Source of the DNA: Lytechinus variegatus
Taxonomy: Eukaryota; Echinodermata; Echinoidea; Temnopleuroida; Toxopneustidae
Reading direction: 5' to 3'
Assembly: GCF_018143015.1 (NCBI RefSeq)
Contig: NC_054741.1
Span: 16,553,736-16,617,735, forward strand
Length of the DNA stretch: 64,000 nt
A program made the position numbers and the translations under genes. Under the pieces are notes generated by a model, which did not search any database, had not been told where the DNA came from, and saw only the letters and a list, made by a program, of their open reading frames with translations. Position 1 is the first letter of the stretch; the number at the start of each line of letters is the position of its first letter. Positions 1 to 51,600 of this stretch are shown here, in pieces.

Positions 1-97
1 TACCTTTCCTAAAGCTTACCTATTGTGCGAAAGGATTGGTACTGGGTTTGGGAATTCTTATTTTATCAACATCCATTCCATTTTATCGACTACACAG

Positions 98-274
98 GAC
101 GTAATTCGTGAGATGAACCGTCTTGGCATGCTCGTTGACCTCTCACACGTCTCTGTAGACACGATGAATGACGCTCTTGACGTAACCGAAGCACCGGTCA
201 TCTTTAGCCACACCTCGGCATACGCACTATGCAACCACTACCGAAACGCACCAGACAGTGTCCTCAGGAGAGTG
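98..274 (+). CDS. DPEP1: Dipeptidase exon A (zinc-site exon)
   Basis: Acceptor TACACAG ends at 97 and donor GTATGT begins at 275; 59 codons, phase 0 at both ends. Encodes the segment from [10 protein letters not shown] to the RRV end, including the DLSH and IFSH zinc ligands and the Arg of HYRN. An open frame extending left to 23 is intron read-through, because similarity to the family starts only at the acceptor. Confidence 0.9.
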
Positions 275-24923: not shown

Positions 24924-26051
24924 TATGGAAGCTTAAAAGTGCCACCGAGATGTTGAGATAATTATCTCGGGAAGTCGACATCTTGATAGCAAAGGATAAG
25001 ATGACGAGATCCCAGATCTCATCATGTCAACATCTTTAAGAAGAGATGATGAGATGACGAGATCCTGGATCTCATCATGTCAACATCTTTTAGAAGAGAT
25101 GATGAGATGACAAGATCCCGGATCTCATCATGTCAACATCTTTTAGAAGAGATGTTGAGATGACAAGATCCCGGATCTCATCATGTTGACATCGTTTAGA
25201 AGAGATGATGAGATGACAAGATCCTGGATCTCATCATGTTGACATCTTTTGGAAGAGATGATGAGATGACAAGATCCCGGATCTCATCATGTTGACATCT
25301 TGTAGAAGAGATGATGAGATGACAAGATCCTGGATCTCATCATGTTGACATCTTGTAGAAGAGATGATGAGATGACAAGATCCTGGATCTCATCATGTCA
25401 ACATCTTGTAGAAGAGATGATGAGATGACAAGATCCTGGATCTCATCATGTCAACATCTTTAGAAGAGATGTTGAGATGACAAGATCATCTCATCATCTC
25501 ATCATCTCTTCTACAAGATGTCAACATGATGAGATCCGGGATCTTGTCATCTCATCATCTCTTCTACAAGATGTCAACATGATGAGATCCGGGATCTTGT
25601 CATCTCATCATCTCTTCCAAAAGATGTCAACATGATGAGATCCAGGATCTTGTCATCTCATCATCTCTTCTAAACGATGTCAACATGATGAGATCCGGGA
25701 TCTTGTCATCTCAACATCTCTTCTAAAAGATGTTGACATGATGAGATCCGGGATCTTGTCATCTCATCATCTCTTCTAAAAGATGTTGACATGATGAGAT
25801 CCAGGATCTTGTCATCTCATCATCTCTTCTAAAAGATGTCGACATGATGAGATCCAGGATCTCGTCATCTCAACATCTCTTCTAAAAGATGTCGACATGA
25901 TGAGATCCAGGATCTTGTCATCTCATCATCTCTTCTAAAAGATGTCGACATGATGAGATCCAGGATCTCGTCATCTTATCTTTTGCTATCAAGATGTCGA
26001 CTTCCCGAGATAATTATCTCAACATCTCGGTGGCACTTTTAAGCTTCCATA
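24924..26051. mobile_element. Giant hairpin element made of 53-bp tandem units
   Basis: Terminal inverted repeats of about 70 bp start TATGGAAGCTTAAAAGTGCC and include ATAATTATCTCGGG and GTCGACATCTTGATAGC. TAAAAC flanks both ends (24918-24923, 26052-26057). Between the termini, about nine direct 53-bp units (each with GAGATCCTGGATCTC and GAGATGATGAGATGAC) fill the left arm to about 25490. They then run in opposite orientation back to the right end. There is no coding capacity. A solo copy of the terminus lies at 41212-41261. The superfamily is not identified. Confidence 0.9.
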
Positions 26052-45600: not shown

Positions 45601-48600
45601 ACTGACTTTCTCTATTTTTTTATTTCATACAAAAATGTCTTATTTTCATTTCAGTTTCACAAATATCAATTTTCGAAGTTTTTAAACGAAAGATCTGAAC
45701 TGGTAGCTCACAAAACTGCATGCCACCTCATACTTCTCCACTAGCGTGATTACCATATATAGTTATCTTTGAATAATTCTATTCAAGGTTAGACTTCACC
45801 TCTTCGTGTACCTTCCCCTCTCCCTGCCTCTCTTCCCCCTCTCATTCCTCACTATGTACAATTCATCTCACTTCTGCTACAAATCCTTTATTTTCTCGTT
45901 GTGTCATCTTCACTTTATTTTAGTTTATCATTCCTTTCCTCGTTGGTAGGAATCTTCTGTGTCTATACAAAAAATGAATATTGGTCACTACACATTTGAT
46001 CATCTACAGCAATTAAGTACAAAGTATTATCCTTAAATTCAAACTTACAAGTTATAGAAAGATTTGAATATAAATAAAATAATTGACGTGATGATTTAAA
46101 GTAACTATTTATGGGCAAAAAATTACTCCAATATGATTTATCAAAAAACGAGTCATGTTCTGTCCATTCCATATATATATCATACATACACCTCTTGAAA
46201 TCTTTCTTAATTCCCCTACATGATTTCAGTAATAATATACTTCAAAATCAACATTATGAAACCTCTAATAATTTGGATACAATTCCCATTACTCTTTATC
46301 CATCTGAAAACTCATATATGATGGATGATAATAGTGATATATTATCAGTATTCAGAATCGTACACATCTGAAATAATACCTCTTCCGAACAATTAAAACA
46401 ATCGTTTGATAATCAATAATCAAGAAAACAAAAATGAAGCAAATCTGTGGCGTTTCATATAATGCATACACAAGTCGCTGTTCAATACTCCAACAATGAA
46501 AGAGGCAACAGAAATGAATCCGAGGTTTATATACGTGCCAACAAACGTGTATATTTCGATTCCAAGTAGGTAATAAAAGTCAAAATTTACATATAATCCT
46601 TATTTTGTACGACAAAGTTTCTATGCAAAACATTATATAATGCCTTTCATGAAATTGTATTTATAAAGGGCTCTTTTGTTCCAGAGATGTTTATTTCCTT
46701 GCCATGTGCTAATGACATCAGATGGCCAGGTTTGAATTACTAGCTATTGCCCTGAACATATATGGTTTTATTTTTGTAGACAGGTTTTTGACCTGAAAAT
46801 CTAACCAACTGTTGAGCAGTTAGTAACTGATGGCCAATTAGATTCACCCAACCATACAAACTGATTACCCTATGTGAGTTACGCAAATTTTAACCAATAG
46901 TTGACGTTGTGGACGGTATTATGTTAACCAGTGTTGGGTAAAACTTGAGCATTCATTAATTTTGATTAAGTATTTTAAGAGTGTAAGGAATTGGAATTCC
47001 TGCATATGCAAACATTTCCTTTCCTTCCCTTCCCTCCACTTTTTACTTGACTTTTCTTTTATGATAAAGTGCTAGAGAATGGTTCTTTTTATGAAATCCA
47101 TATTTTACGATGTACAGATTGCATGTATCTCATCTAAGACCACTGCCCCAAGCTCCTTTTTATCACTGAGCTCCTTTGCCATGTCCTGAAAGTTCACTTC
47201 TGCCGCTTGCTCCGGGGTGGCAAGTATTATGGTTGCATCTGATGACAGACAAAGTTTAATGAAGGGAATAAATAGATATACAAATTAATTCCAAATGTAC
47301 ATGACACGTTTTATGAAATCCATATTTTACCGTGTACAAATTGCTTGTATCTCATCTTGGACTACTGCTCCAAGCTCCTTGTTATCATTTAGCTCCTTTG
47401 CCATGTCCTGGAACTCAACTGCTGCCGCTGCTTCCTGGGTGGCAAGTATTATGTTTGCATCTGGTGACAGACAAAGTTTAATCAAGGGAATAAATAGAGA
47501 TACAAATTAATTCCAAATGTACATGACACGTTTTGTACAGATTGCATGTATCTCATCTTGGACTACTGCTCCAAGCTCCTTGACATTATCCAGAACTCAG
47601 CTGCTGCTGCTGCTTCCTGGTGGCAAGTATTATGGTTGCATCTGGTGACAGAGAAAGTTTAATCAAGGGAATAAATAGAAGTACAAATTAATTCCAACTG
47701 TATATGACTCATTTATTTATTTATTCATTTTTCCAACAAAATTTATAATGCAATAAGACATAACATCAGAAAATATAGTGACATAAATATTCAAATAAAC
47801 CAAATATAAAGAATATACACCTGATACAGAAGACAATATTTCCAATTTGATAATAACAATATGCAAGATACAGTATGTTGCAAAAATGGAGTGGCCCACT
47901 AAAAAAGCAAAGCTTGTAAAGTGTGGACCACTCAAGAAGAAAAAAAAGTATAACACTTAAATCTATGTGGGCCAAAAGGAAGCAGCAATACAAAATAGAT
48001 AATGAAATAAAGAAATATAATATAATAAAGGAAATTAATGTTTAAAGGTGAGCAGAGACAAAAACAAGACATGAAGACACAACAAAACAAAACAACAACA
48101 ATAACAAAAAATAAGACACACAAAACAACAGAGTAAAAATAAACAAACATCGCTGCACAAACTGCGAAAATCCGAAGAAGGGAGAAATGGAGAAAGAGAA
48201 AGGCAAATAGAGAAAGAGAATGAGATAAGTGTAGTCAATCTAACACAATCACCGATTGGACAGTTGTCCAGCACCTATCATTCATTATTTCGTTTAAAGA
48301 CATTGCTGATGATTAATTATTGATCATTCTCCTGAAAATTAATTTCTCTCTAAGACGTTTGATATACATAACCAGACCGCATCGGGCTACAAATGTAATG
48401 TTTGTGCAGAATACACAATATTCGTTTGTCACCCCTAGACTTTTTTTAAAGAATAAACTAAAAGAAACTAGGTATGGACAAGTTGTAATAATGAAATCCC
48501 TATAGTTTGGCTAAAATTATTATTTGTCTATTTATCAATGTTTATCAATGACATGACAAATCATCGTGCCAAAAATACAATGCATCTGGTTAACTTTTAT

Positions 48601-51600
48601 TGCCTTCATTGTTTTTGTAGTTCTATTTTGTCATTAAAATCGGAATCCGATCGGTCGCTCTCTGAAAATGAGAAGCCTAGAAATGTGAAGTCATAATCAT
48701 AATAAACCTTTTTGTGCTTGAGAAAATATACCCCTGCCCCCCAAAAAGTTTTCACCAGACTTCACAATCAATCATGCAACACCCAGATACCAATTCCAAG
48801 TCAGAATCTAAATGTGTCCCTCCAACTACATGGCGACGGGGAATAACCTTTCTCCCATTGCCCCCTAGATGTGCTTTACTGATTACTCTACAAGTCGGAG
48901 ATGGGATGAAACATACTTTGATAATCTTCTTTAGATGCATTTTTGGTCCACTGCACCGTCGCTATACCATTATAAGTCCATGAATGTATCTGGTCCTTGA
49001 TTATTGATAGTAAGGGTGTTACTATTAATACTTTTGTTGTCTTCTTGTCAATCAGCAAAAAAAATAGAGCGGGAATGCCATACCCTAAGGACCGTAATTG
49101 ACTTTATGAAAAGGATGCATATCTCACCAATGGAATATAACAAAAATCTTATCTCGTTTGCAAGGCTTAAAGCAAAGTTGTACTTATCAACTCGAATTCA
49201 TTCCACTTGCTGTGATGGATAAAACTTGAGCATTCATTAATTATTTTGAAAGTAAGGAATTGAAATTCCTGCTTATGCAAACATCCTTTCCTTCCCTCCA
49301 CTTTTTAACTTTTCTTTTATGATAAAGCGCTAGAGAATGGTTATTTTTATGAAATCCATATTTTACCATGTAGAGATTGCGTGTATCTCATCTAAGACTT
49401 CTGCTCCAAGCTCCTTGGCATCATCCAGATCTTTCGCCATGTCCTGGAACTCGGCTGCTGCTTCCGGGGTGGCAAGTATTATGGTTGTATCTGGTGACAG
49501 AGAAAGTTTAATCGAGGGAATGAATAGAAGTACGAATTAATTCCAAATGTATATGACACGTTTTATGAAATCCATATTTTACCATGTAGAGATTGCATGT
49601 ACAAATCTCATCTTGGACTACTGCTCCAAGCCCCTTGTTATCTAGATTTTTCGCCATGTCCTGGAACTCGCTCGAAGCTGCTGATTCCGGGGTGGCAAGT
49701 ATTATGGTTGCGTCTGGTGACAGAGAAAGTTTAATGAAGGGAATAGAGGTACAAATTAATTCCAAATGTACATGACACGTTTTATGAAATCCATATTTTA
49801 CCGTGTACAAATTGCTTGTATCTCATCTTGGACTACTGCTCCAAGCTCCTTGTTATCATTTAGCTCCTTTGCCATGTCCTGGAACTCAACTGCTGCCGCT
49901 GCTTCCTGGGTGGCAAGTATTATTGCATCTGGTGACAGACAAAGTTTAATCAAGGGAATAGAAGTAATTAATTCCAAATGTATATGACACATTCATTTAT
50001 TTAGTTATTCATTTTTCCAACAAAATTTATAATGCAATAAGACATACATGTAACATCAGAAAATATAGTGACATAAATATTCAAATAAACCAAATATAAA
50101 GAATATACACCTGATACAGAAGATAATATTTCCAATTTGATAACAATATGCAAGATATGTTGGAAAAATGGAGTGGCCCACTAAAAAAAGCAAAGCTTGT
50201 AAAGTATGGACCACTCAAGAAGAAAAAAAGTATAACACTTAAATCTATATCGGCCAAAAACAAGCAGCAATACAAAATAGATAATGAAATAAAGATATAA
50301 AAAAATCAATTATAATAAAAGGAAATTAATATTAAAAGGTGAGCAGAGACAAAAAAGACATGAAGACACAACAAAACAACAACAACAAAAAATAAGACAC
50401 AAAACAACAATAAAAATAAACAAACATTGCTGCACAAACTGCAAAAATCCGAAGAAGGGAGAAATGGAGAAAAAAAAGCAAAGAAAGAAAGAGGGATAGA
50501 GAGAGAGAAGTGTAGTCTATCTAACACAATCACCGAAGGCAACATGTAAACAGGTAAACAAAATAAATTATAGAGGTAAAGGAATCAATATGAGTTGTTG
50601 TAAGAATATTAATTTCAATTTTCTTTTAAATGAATGAAGAGAAGGGGAAAACTGGATATCAGGGTGAAGAGAATTCCAAAATTTTGGGCCTCTACATATA
50701 AATGTATTTTGGGCGAACAGCGTTCTAAGCATCTAGGCAAATGAAGGTCATTGCAACGTCTAGTAGGGTATTGAATGGAGATGGATTATTTTTTGTATAA
50801 ATAAGATGTGTGTTTATGGTTTTCATATGATATTAACCTTTGATTTAAAAAAAAACATAATGCTGTGTTTTCATCAACATTACAGGACACTAGTCCAGCA
50901 CCTATCATTCATTATTTCATTTAAAGACATTGCTGATTAATTATTGCTCATTCTCCTAAAACTAATTTCTCTCGAAGACATATTTCATAGATAACCAGAC
51001 TGCATTGGGCTACAAAAATAATTTTTGGGCAGAATACACAATATTCGTTTGTCACCCCTAGACTTTTTTTAAAGAATAAACTAAAAGAAACAAGGTATGG
51101 AAAAGTTGTATTAATGAAATCCCTAAAGTTTGGCTAAAATTATTATTTGTCTATTTATCAATGTTTATCAATAAATGACATGACAAATCTTCTTTCCGAA
51201 AATATCTGGTTAAATTTCATCGCCTGCATTCGCATGCTCAGCTGATGTTTTATTTCTTTTTTTTTCAAAATCCATCACCGGAGTGGAAAAACTGGCTGCC
51301 GAGTTCGTGTGTGTGTGTTTTATGACTTTTATCAAGGCTTTCTGATATGCCGGCCAATCTATAGATACAAGGTTAAAGATGTCAATTAATATTTGATTTC
51401 TCTGCTCTTGTCTTGACACAGAACCTGGGGAGACCATGGACAAGAAGCATTAGAATCAGCTCATGTGTGTCTTGTCAATGCTACTGCTACTGGCACAGAA
51501 ACCCTCAAGAATCTTATCTTACCAGGAATTGGTTCTTTCACCATTGTTGACGGTGGAAAGGTCAAAGGTGACGATGTCGGTAACAAGTGAGTGATGATGA

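What the first reader, a model, noticed from the sequence alone, without database searches (positions are those of the whole stretch)
47109..49928. Six tandem copies of a DExH-helicase-like exon on the minus strand inside NAE1 intron 1
Six units (three in each copy of a large direct duplication) each have an acceptor-like CACCAG/CATCAG with upstream pyrimidines, a segment of about 130 bp, and a GTAAAATA donor. Units a and d read ATIILATPE...VLDEIHAI, like RecQ-family motif Ib (TPE) and motif II (DExH). Units b and f have TQE and DEIQ; c and e are degraded. The frame is open in four of six. Amplifying a single helicase exon as an array is unusual: it could be an exon array of a minus-strand gene, a captured exon carried by the duplication, or a decaying remnant.
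Basis: partly seen in the sequence, partly recalled or inferred. Interest (0 to 1): 0.8.

Follow-up and report, generated by a model that had tools for sequence, protein, structure and literature searches.

The report
Helicase gene scrap, one exon repeated
Inside an intron of another gene lies a broken piece of a RecQ-type DNA helicase gene in which one small coding segment occurs six times; it is most likely a decaying remnant, though its coding parts still carry traces of past selection.

Summary
The six units are real: exon-like segments of 124-131 nt (u3 is broken) on the minus strand of NAE1 intron 1, with no other close copy found in the genome. They come from a RecQ-family helicase. Its donor phase fits the array exons, and the joined exons match RecQ (TIGR00614 E 9e-6 and 3e-8) and, for u1, pass Pfam DEAD. 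The C1:72.31 Mb relative has the same exon order, boundaries and phases. Walker A and C-terminal helicase exons were not found in 83 kb around it or near C2:16.6 Mb genome-wide. The exon-Ia acceptor is CTG where two relatives have CAG; u3 lost its donor, u5 its frame. Silent sites exceed spacer divergence in 5 of 6 pairs tested; dN/dS is about 0.4 among units (modest support) and 0.18 in exon Ia (strong). Best reading: a two-exon fragment of a RecQ-like gene, its second exon tripled, then duplicated, now decaying. Mutually exclusive exons, past or present, are not excluded.

The parts
48917..49052 (-). RecQ motif Ia exon ([45 protein letters not shown]), 136 nt, phase 0 to phase 1, donor A|GTATGT; acceptor reads GCTG where two relatives have GCAG
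47109..47238 (-). u1: exon with TPE and DEIH, frame intact, acceptor CATCAG, donor GTAAAA
47331..47460 (-). u2: exon with TQE and DEIQ, frame intact; same exon as u6 (0 of 127 mismatches, one 3-nt gap)
47534..47641 (-). u3: broken unit (-1 nt, -19 nt, donor deleted)
49367..49490 (-). u4: exon with TPE and DEIH, frame intact, ends ...ISTW like the C4 and C1:72.31 Mb relatives (STW)
49583..49713 (-). u5: unit with +4 nt after DEI, leaves the frame
49802..49928 (-). u6: exon with TQE and DEIQ, frame intact, 3-nt gap
46931..49211 (.). copy 1 of the tandem duplication (three units, LINE-like remnant, motif Ia exon); its right edge is inferred from where copy 2 begins
49212..51230 (.). copy 2 of the tandem duplication, cut before the motif Ia exon
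47711..48255 (-). dispersed repeat ending at unit u3, read as the 3' end of a 5'-truncated LINE (37 matches elsewhere in the genome, with 40 of 222 candidates scored, so a lower bound; its second copy ends at u6)
   Evidence: ORF reading; LINE name recalled, no Pfam match

Best explanation
A fragment of a RecQ-family-like helicase gene sits on the minus strand of NAE1 intron 1. It keeps two consecutive exons, one for motif Ia and one for motifs Ib-II. The second exon was multiplied to three units, a LINE-like element sits just upstream of the triplet, and a stretch of about 2.3 kb was then duplicated in tandem (second copy cut short), giving six units. Exon sequence moved between units by gene conversion or unequal exchange (u2 = u6). 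The exons diverged while still under coding constraint, probably when they belonged to a working gene or gene family. With no Walker A exon and no C-terminal helicase exon found, a mutated exon-Ia acceptor and two of six units broken, the present fragment most likely makes no helicase and is decaying. Shown: anatomy, homology, phases, no missing exon found in the searched range, constraint signal. Inferred: order of events, absence of function.
For: RecQ: Ia+u1 PF00270 26.6 bits (cut-off 26); Ia+u1 TIGR00614 E 9.2e-6 and Ia+u4 E 3.2e-8, contiguous over profile 55-140 and 55-142 (both below TIGR00614's whole-protein cut-off). Same exon order, boundaries and split codons as the exons at C1:72313.4-72316.0 kb; C4:1607297-1629059 has the same order and the same phases of the TPE-DExH exon, which is five codons longer at its start there. 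The C1 gene's three joined exons match WRN and RecQ chains at E 9e-25 and 2e-20. Incomplete: in C2:16544000-16627000 the best Walker A match was E 0.25 on the plus strand with a profile, and the C-terminal profile had no match at E<=1 (weak tblastn matches only). Genome-wide, none of the matches lay on C2 near 16.6 Mb (30 of 30, 72 of 72 and 56 of 56 candidates scored). Decay: acceptor CTG for CAG, u3 and u5 broken. Scattered partial kin of the C1 C-terminal exon on C8, C9/C10, C14, C19.
Against: dN/dS is below 1 in 9 of 10 pairs of units (0.29-0.57; the tenth pair is identical), and the codon model prefers omega 0.41-0.42 over 1 (p 0.007-0.012, four topologies), which a fragment amplified only after death would not show. 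4 of 6 units keep frame and both splice signals. Weakening that: codon-position counts in the units (9, 11, 16) are not significant (p 0.34), and open frames alone mean little (0.28-0.33 chance of no nonsense in 41 random changes).
Confidence: 0.7

Rival explanations
1. A working or recently working set of mutually exclusive exons: one of several motif Ib-II exons is chosen for a RecQ-like protein, with active (DEIH) and altered (DEIQ) versions; the remaining exons are unrecognised, distant or recently lost.
For: Exon length is 3n+1 in the four intact units, so only one can be used in frame. Silent sites exceed the spacers in 5 of 6 pairs tested, with counts rounded: u1-u2 8 of 27 against 3 of 94 (p 2.5e-4), u1-u5 11 of 28 against 4 of 90 (p 1.6e-5). 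Omega about 0.4. Exon u1-u4 18.5% against 7.5% in the non-exon parts of the duplication (p 2.5e-4). Exon-Ia donor GTATGT looks strong (my reading).
Against: Walker A and C-terminal exons not found; exon-Ia acceptor CTG; u3 and u5 broken; no transcript data. Whole exon against spacer is significant in only 3 of 9 pairs, silent against spacer not in u4-u5 (p 0.12), exon u3-u6 is like the flanks (p 0.44), and u2-u6 goes the other way (exon 0 differences, spacer 5 of 87, p 0.012). Conversion between older paralogues could give the same pattern.
Confidence: 0.13
2. Origin rather than present state: the fragment is a degraded copy of a mobile element that carries a RecQ-like helicase together with a DUF6589 gene, so its coding constraint reflects selection on active copies elsewhere. 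This can be true together with the best explanation.
For: The only other close motif Ia exon found in the genome, C1:92338382-92338517 (72% aa, dN/dS 0.18, Fisher p 1.6e-4), has a DUF6589-like exon 2.1 kb downstream (PF20231 E 2.3e-4; tblastn 5.8e-7 to the C4:4557.6 kb DUF6589 exon). Three other RecQ-like loci on C4 have a convergent DUF6589 gene 4.9-6.2 kb away. The C1:72.31 Mb kind has scattered partial copies.
Against: No DUF6589 match at E<=0.01 in the 83 kb around the array, nor in the fetched parts of C4:1.60-1.63 Mb and C1:72.31 Mb. The C1:92.34 Mb DUF6589 match is under Pfam's cut-off (20.4 against 27 bits). No clear terminal inverted repeats at the array. The paired RecQs on C4 are distant (25-29% to the C4:1.63 Mb and C1:72.32 Mb C-terminal exons).
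Confidence: 0.3
3. A lone helicase exon captured and amplified as a simple tandem array.
For: Units are near-tandem at about 220 bp.
Against: A second helicase exon with fitting phase lies with the array.
Confidence: 0.03

Closest known systems
RecQ-family SF2 helicases (TIGR00614; WRN, RecQ, RECQL5; and the C1:72.31 Mb and C4:1.61 Mb loci of this genome)
   Same: Motif Ia, TPE and DExH sequence; exon order and phases of the in-genome relatives
   Different: Only about 85 residues remain; Walker A and motifs III-VI not found; u2 and u6 have DEIQ for DExH
Tandem exon duplications and mutually exclusive exons (PMC9013439 and PMC6071210, seen in a search listing with the start of the abstract)
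   Same: Similar exons head to tail, each with acceptor and donor, length not a multiple of 3
   Different: No host gene and no transcript shown; two of six units broken
C4:1.607-1.629 Mb RecQ-like locus of this genome
   Same: The same exon is repeated (4 copies) downstream of single Walker A and motif Ia exons
   Different: There the C-terminal exon is repeated too (first three copies cut at residue 166), and the copied stretches are 99.0-99.9% alike
Helicase-bearing DNA transposons (AcademH, KolobokH; passages of PMC10799480 read; the AcademH paper PMC7165386 was not held)
   Same: DEAD and Helicase_C domains carried by transposons
   Different: No transposase, terminal repeats or target-site duplication shown at the array

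Membership tests
RecQ-family helicase | Sequence match to RecQ/DEAD profiles | tested here: met
   Ia+u1 PF00270 26.6 bits vs cut-off 26, Ia+u2 17.1; TIGR00614 E 3.2e-8 for Ia+u4, under its whole-protein cut-off
RecQ-family helicase | Motifs Ib (TPE) and II (DExH); motif names recalled | tested here: met
   u1 and u4 have TPE and DEIH; u2 and u6 TQE and DEIQ
RecQ-family helicase | Walker A motif and C-terminal helicase domain in the same gene | tested here: not met
   none found:
Mutually exclusive exon array | Homologous adjacent exons with splice signals, in-frame use of one only | tested here: met
   4 of 6 units, length 3n+1
Mutually exclusive exon array | Transcripts that include exactly one unit | not testable with these tools
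   no RNA data
Mutually exclusive exon array | Host gene with upstream and downstream exons | tested here: not met
   one upstream exon with mutated acceptor, none recognised downstream
Helicase/DUF6589 mobile element | Linked DUF6589 gene | tested here: not met
   none in 83 kb at E<=0.01; one near the C1:92.34 Mb relative, below Pfam's cut-off
Helicase/DUF6589 mobile element | Terminal repeats and target-site duplication | tested here: inconclusive
   18 inverted pairs of 14-25 nt, 74-88% complementary, none convincing; target-site duplication not tested

The most novel reading that the evidence does not exclude
The array is, or until recently was, a set of alternative catalytic-centre exons: a RecQ-like protein that swaps its motif Ib-II segment between active (DEIH) and altered (DEIQ) versions, with exon diversity kept by selection while the spacers are homogenised; the same exon is repeated in a second RecQ-like locus of the genome (C4).
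Probability: 0.1. Interest if true: 0.75.

Novelty: new member of a known kind. Interest (0 to 1): 0.33.

Why it matters
If a relic, it is an ordinary example of how gene fragments amplify inside introns, with the useful twist that the exons preserve older coding divergence than the DNA around them. If the exons are still used, a helicase that alternates its catalytic motif by splicing would be new to me; I know of none from memory, and the searches nearest to the point listed none.

Tried and rejected
Lone-exon capture: rejected after the motif Ia exon was found. Searching for the rest of the gene with Walker A, C-terminal and DUF6589 queries in C2:16544000-16627000 (about 57 kb on the low side and 23 kb on the high side of the array) and, for Walker A and C-terminal, genome-wide gave nothing credible near the array. 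PDB search with one unit alone gave only a chance hit, E 0.76. Open frames as proof of function: rejected by simulation. Codon-position test on the units: not significant. Inverted repeats as transposon ends: weak ones only. The joined exons also had chance-level matches to unrelated families (citrate synthase II E 0.0034 and 0.027; ResIII and PepSY_TM). Eight paper searches showed nothing on this array in their listings: RecQ in sea urchin with transposon, 3 papers; DUF6589, 0; RecQ with exon duplication, helicase gene and echinoderm, 1 paper with 3 of 4 terms; Academ with sea urchin, 10 of 206 listed.
Full report
Observation. The window is C2:16553736-16617735 of an 870-Mb genome of 33 contigs. 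All six have a CACCAG or CATCAG acceptor; five of six have the donor GTAAAATATGG; four of six hold the frame from acceptor to donor. No other close copy was found in the genome: a DNA search gave six matches, all within the array (2 of 2 first-look candidates scored). The 3+3 arrangement comes from a tandem duplication, 46931-48255 with 49212-50536 and 48258-48610 with 50885-51230.

Homology. Unit u1 alone matches Pfam DEAD below its cut-off (E 0.0091) and, in the genome, four places on C4 at 49% (E 0.0026). The C4 query finds the array back (E 0.0016 and 0.0047). Within 83 kb around the array the C4 exon gives E 1.6e-8 to u4. C1:72.31 Mb uses the same exon: EASIIFTTPEGAQSDRLLQEIANAELTTIVVDEVHAVSTW, starting two bases before the same codon as the units and ending TG|GTAAGG. 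The C4 exon has the same phases but starts five codons earlier.

The missed exon. The C1:72.31 Mb gene has a motif Ia exon upstream. The same exon is in the window at 49052-48917, minus strand: [45 protein letters not shown]. Its donor A|GTATGT leaves one base and the array exons start with two, so the frame closes. Genome-wide this exon has four matches at E<=10: itself, C1:92338391 (72%), C1:72313472 (31%, E 0.02) and C4:1607975 (30%, E 0.69). Joined Ia+u1 reaches 26.6 bits with PF00270 (cut-off 26) while Ia+u2, with TQE and DEIQ, reaches 17.1. TIGR00614 gives E 9.2e-6 for Ia+u1 and 3.2e-8 for Ia+u4, both under the whole-protein cut-off, as expected for 84-86 residues. The C1:72.31 Mb gene, three exons joined, matches WRN (E 8.6e-25), bacterial RecQ (1.6e-20) and RECQL5 (5.6e-19) chains. 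Its Walker A exon was not in the 6 kb fetched; the C4 locus has one.

What is missing. Profiles and sequences of the Walker A and C-terminal exons found nothing credible in C2:16544000-16627000: the best profile match to Walker A was E 0.25 on the plus strand, none to the C-terminal exon at E<=1, and tblastn gave only weak matches. Genome-wide, 30 of 30 Walker A candidates, 72 of 72 candidates for the C4 C-terminal exon and 56 of 56 for the C1 one were scored, with no match on C2 near 16.6 Mb. The family profile search scored 40 of 218 candidates, none there. The exon Ia acceptor is GCTG in the window where C1:92.34 Mb and C1:72.31 Mb have GCAG; the next AG is nine bases inside. Unit u3 has lost bases and its donor, u5 its frame. 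The second triplet (u4-u6) lies upstream of exon Ia on the minus strand, and its own copy of exon Ia is cut off.

Selection and age. Among five units (u3 left out), pairwise dN/dS is 0.29-0.57 in nine pairs and undefined in u2-u6, whose exons are identical over 127 aligned bases. A codon model gives omega 0.41-0.42, better than 1 at p 0.007-0.012 over four topologies; exchange between units breaks the tree assumption. Variable columns by codon position are 9, 11, 16, not significant (p 0.34). Exon Ia against C1:92.34 Mb is clearer: differences 9, 1, 17 by codon position, dN/dS 0.18, Fisher p 1.6e-4. Silent sites differ more than spacers in 5 of 6 pairs tested (u1-u2 8 of 27 against 3 of 94; u1-u5 11 of 28 against 4 of 90; not u4-u5, p 0.12, rounded counts). 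Whole exon against spacer is significant in 3 of 9 pairs, and u2-u6 goes the other way (0 differences in the exon, 5 of 87 in the spacer). The non-exon parts of the duplication differ by 74 of 993, exon u1-u4 by 23 of 124 (p 2.5e-4), exon u2-u5 by 20 of 127 (p 0.003), exon u3-u6 by 10 of 106 (p 0.44). For exon Ia the downstream intron aligns with C1:92.34 Mb (84 mismatches of 608 aligned bases in the rows from 48882 to 48259) while the upstream intron does not align, so a recombination edge lies at or in the exon. I infer that exons diverged in working genes, and that spacers and flanks were later made alike by duplication and conversion.

Origin. The C4:1.61 Mb locus has one Walker A exon and one motif Ia exon, followed by four copies of the TPE-DExH exon alternating with four copies of the C-terminal exon, three of them cut short; so the same exon is repeated in a second RecQ-like locus, there in stretches 99.0-99.9% alike, which could also be an assembly effect. 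The C1:72.31 Mb kind has scattered partial copies. A DUF6589-like exon lies 2.1 kb from the C1:92.34 Mb motif Ia exon, and three distant RecQ-like loci on C4 each have a convergent DUF6589 gene 4.9-6.2 kb away, out of 29 DUF6589 matches. This hints at a mobile helicase/DUF6589 pair, but no DUF6589 was found near the array and no convincing element ends.

Verdict. A decaying two-exon fragment of a RecQ-like gene with an amplified second exon is the most likely reading (0.7). Mutually exclusive exons, past or present, are not excluded (about 0.1). As a kind it is known: tandem exon duplication inside a gene fragment.

Noticed in passing
window 25001-25976: 18.5 tandem copies of a 53-bp unit (ATGACGAGATCCAGGATCTCATCATCTCAACATCTCTTCGAAAAGATGTTGAC), 93% matches; the unit looks partly self-complementary to the eye.
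   Followed up: no
G000 C4:1607297-1629059 (L019-L021): RecQ-like locus with single Walker A and motif Ia exons, then the TPE-DExH exon and the C-terminal exon alternating four times, three C-terminal copies cut at residue 166.
   Followed up: partly
G000 C4:1487023/1492484, C4:4549275/4556083, C4:34957410/34950310: Three RecQ-like helicase loci each with a convergent DUF6589 gene 4.9-6.2 kb away, possibly one composite mobile unit.
   Followed up: partly
window 47715-48255 and 49994-50536: Dispersed repeat read as a LINE 3' end, placed directly beside the outermost unit in both halves; it differs by 32 of 518 between the halves.
   Followed up: partly
G000 C9:8742574 and C10:3432308; C9:33805159 and C9:37409721; C1:23275179 and C1:27398296: RecQ-like pieces that occur as pairs with the same match scores at distant places, perhaps large duplications or assembly duplicates.
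   Followed up: no
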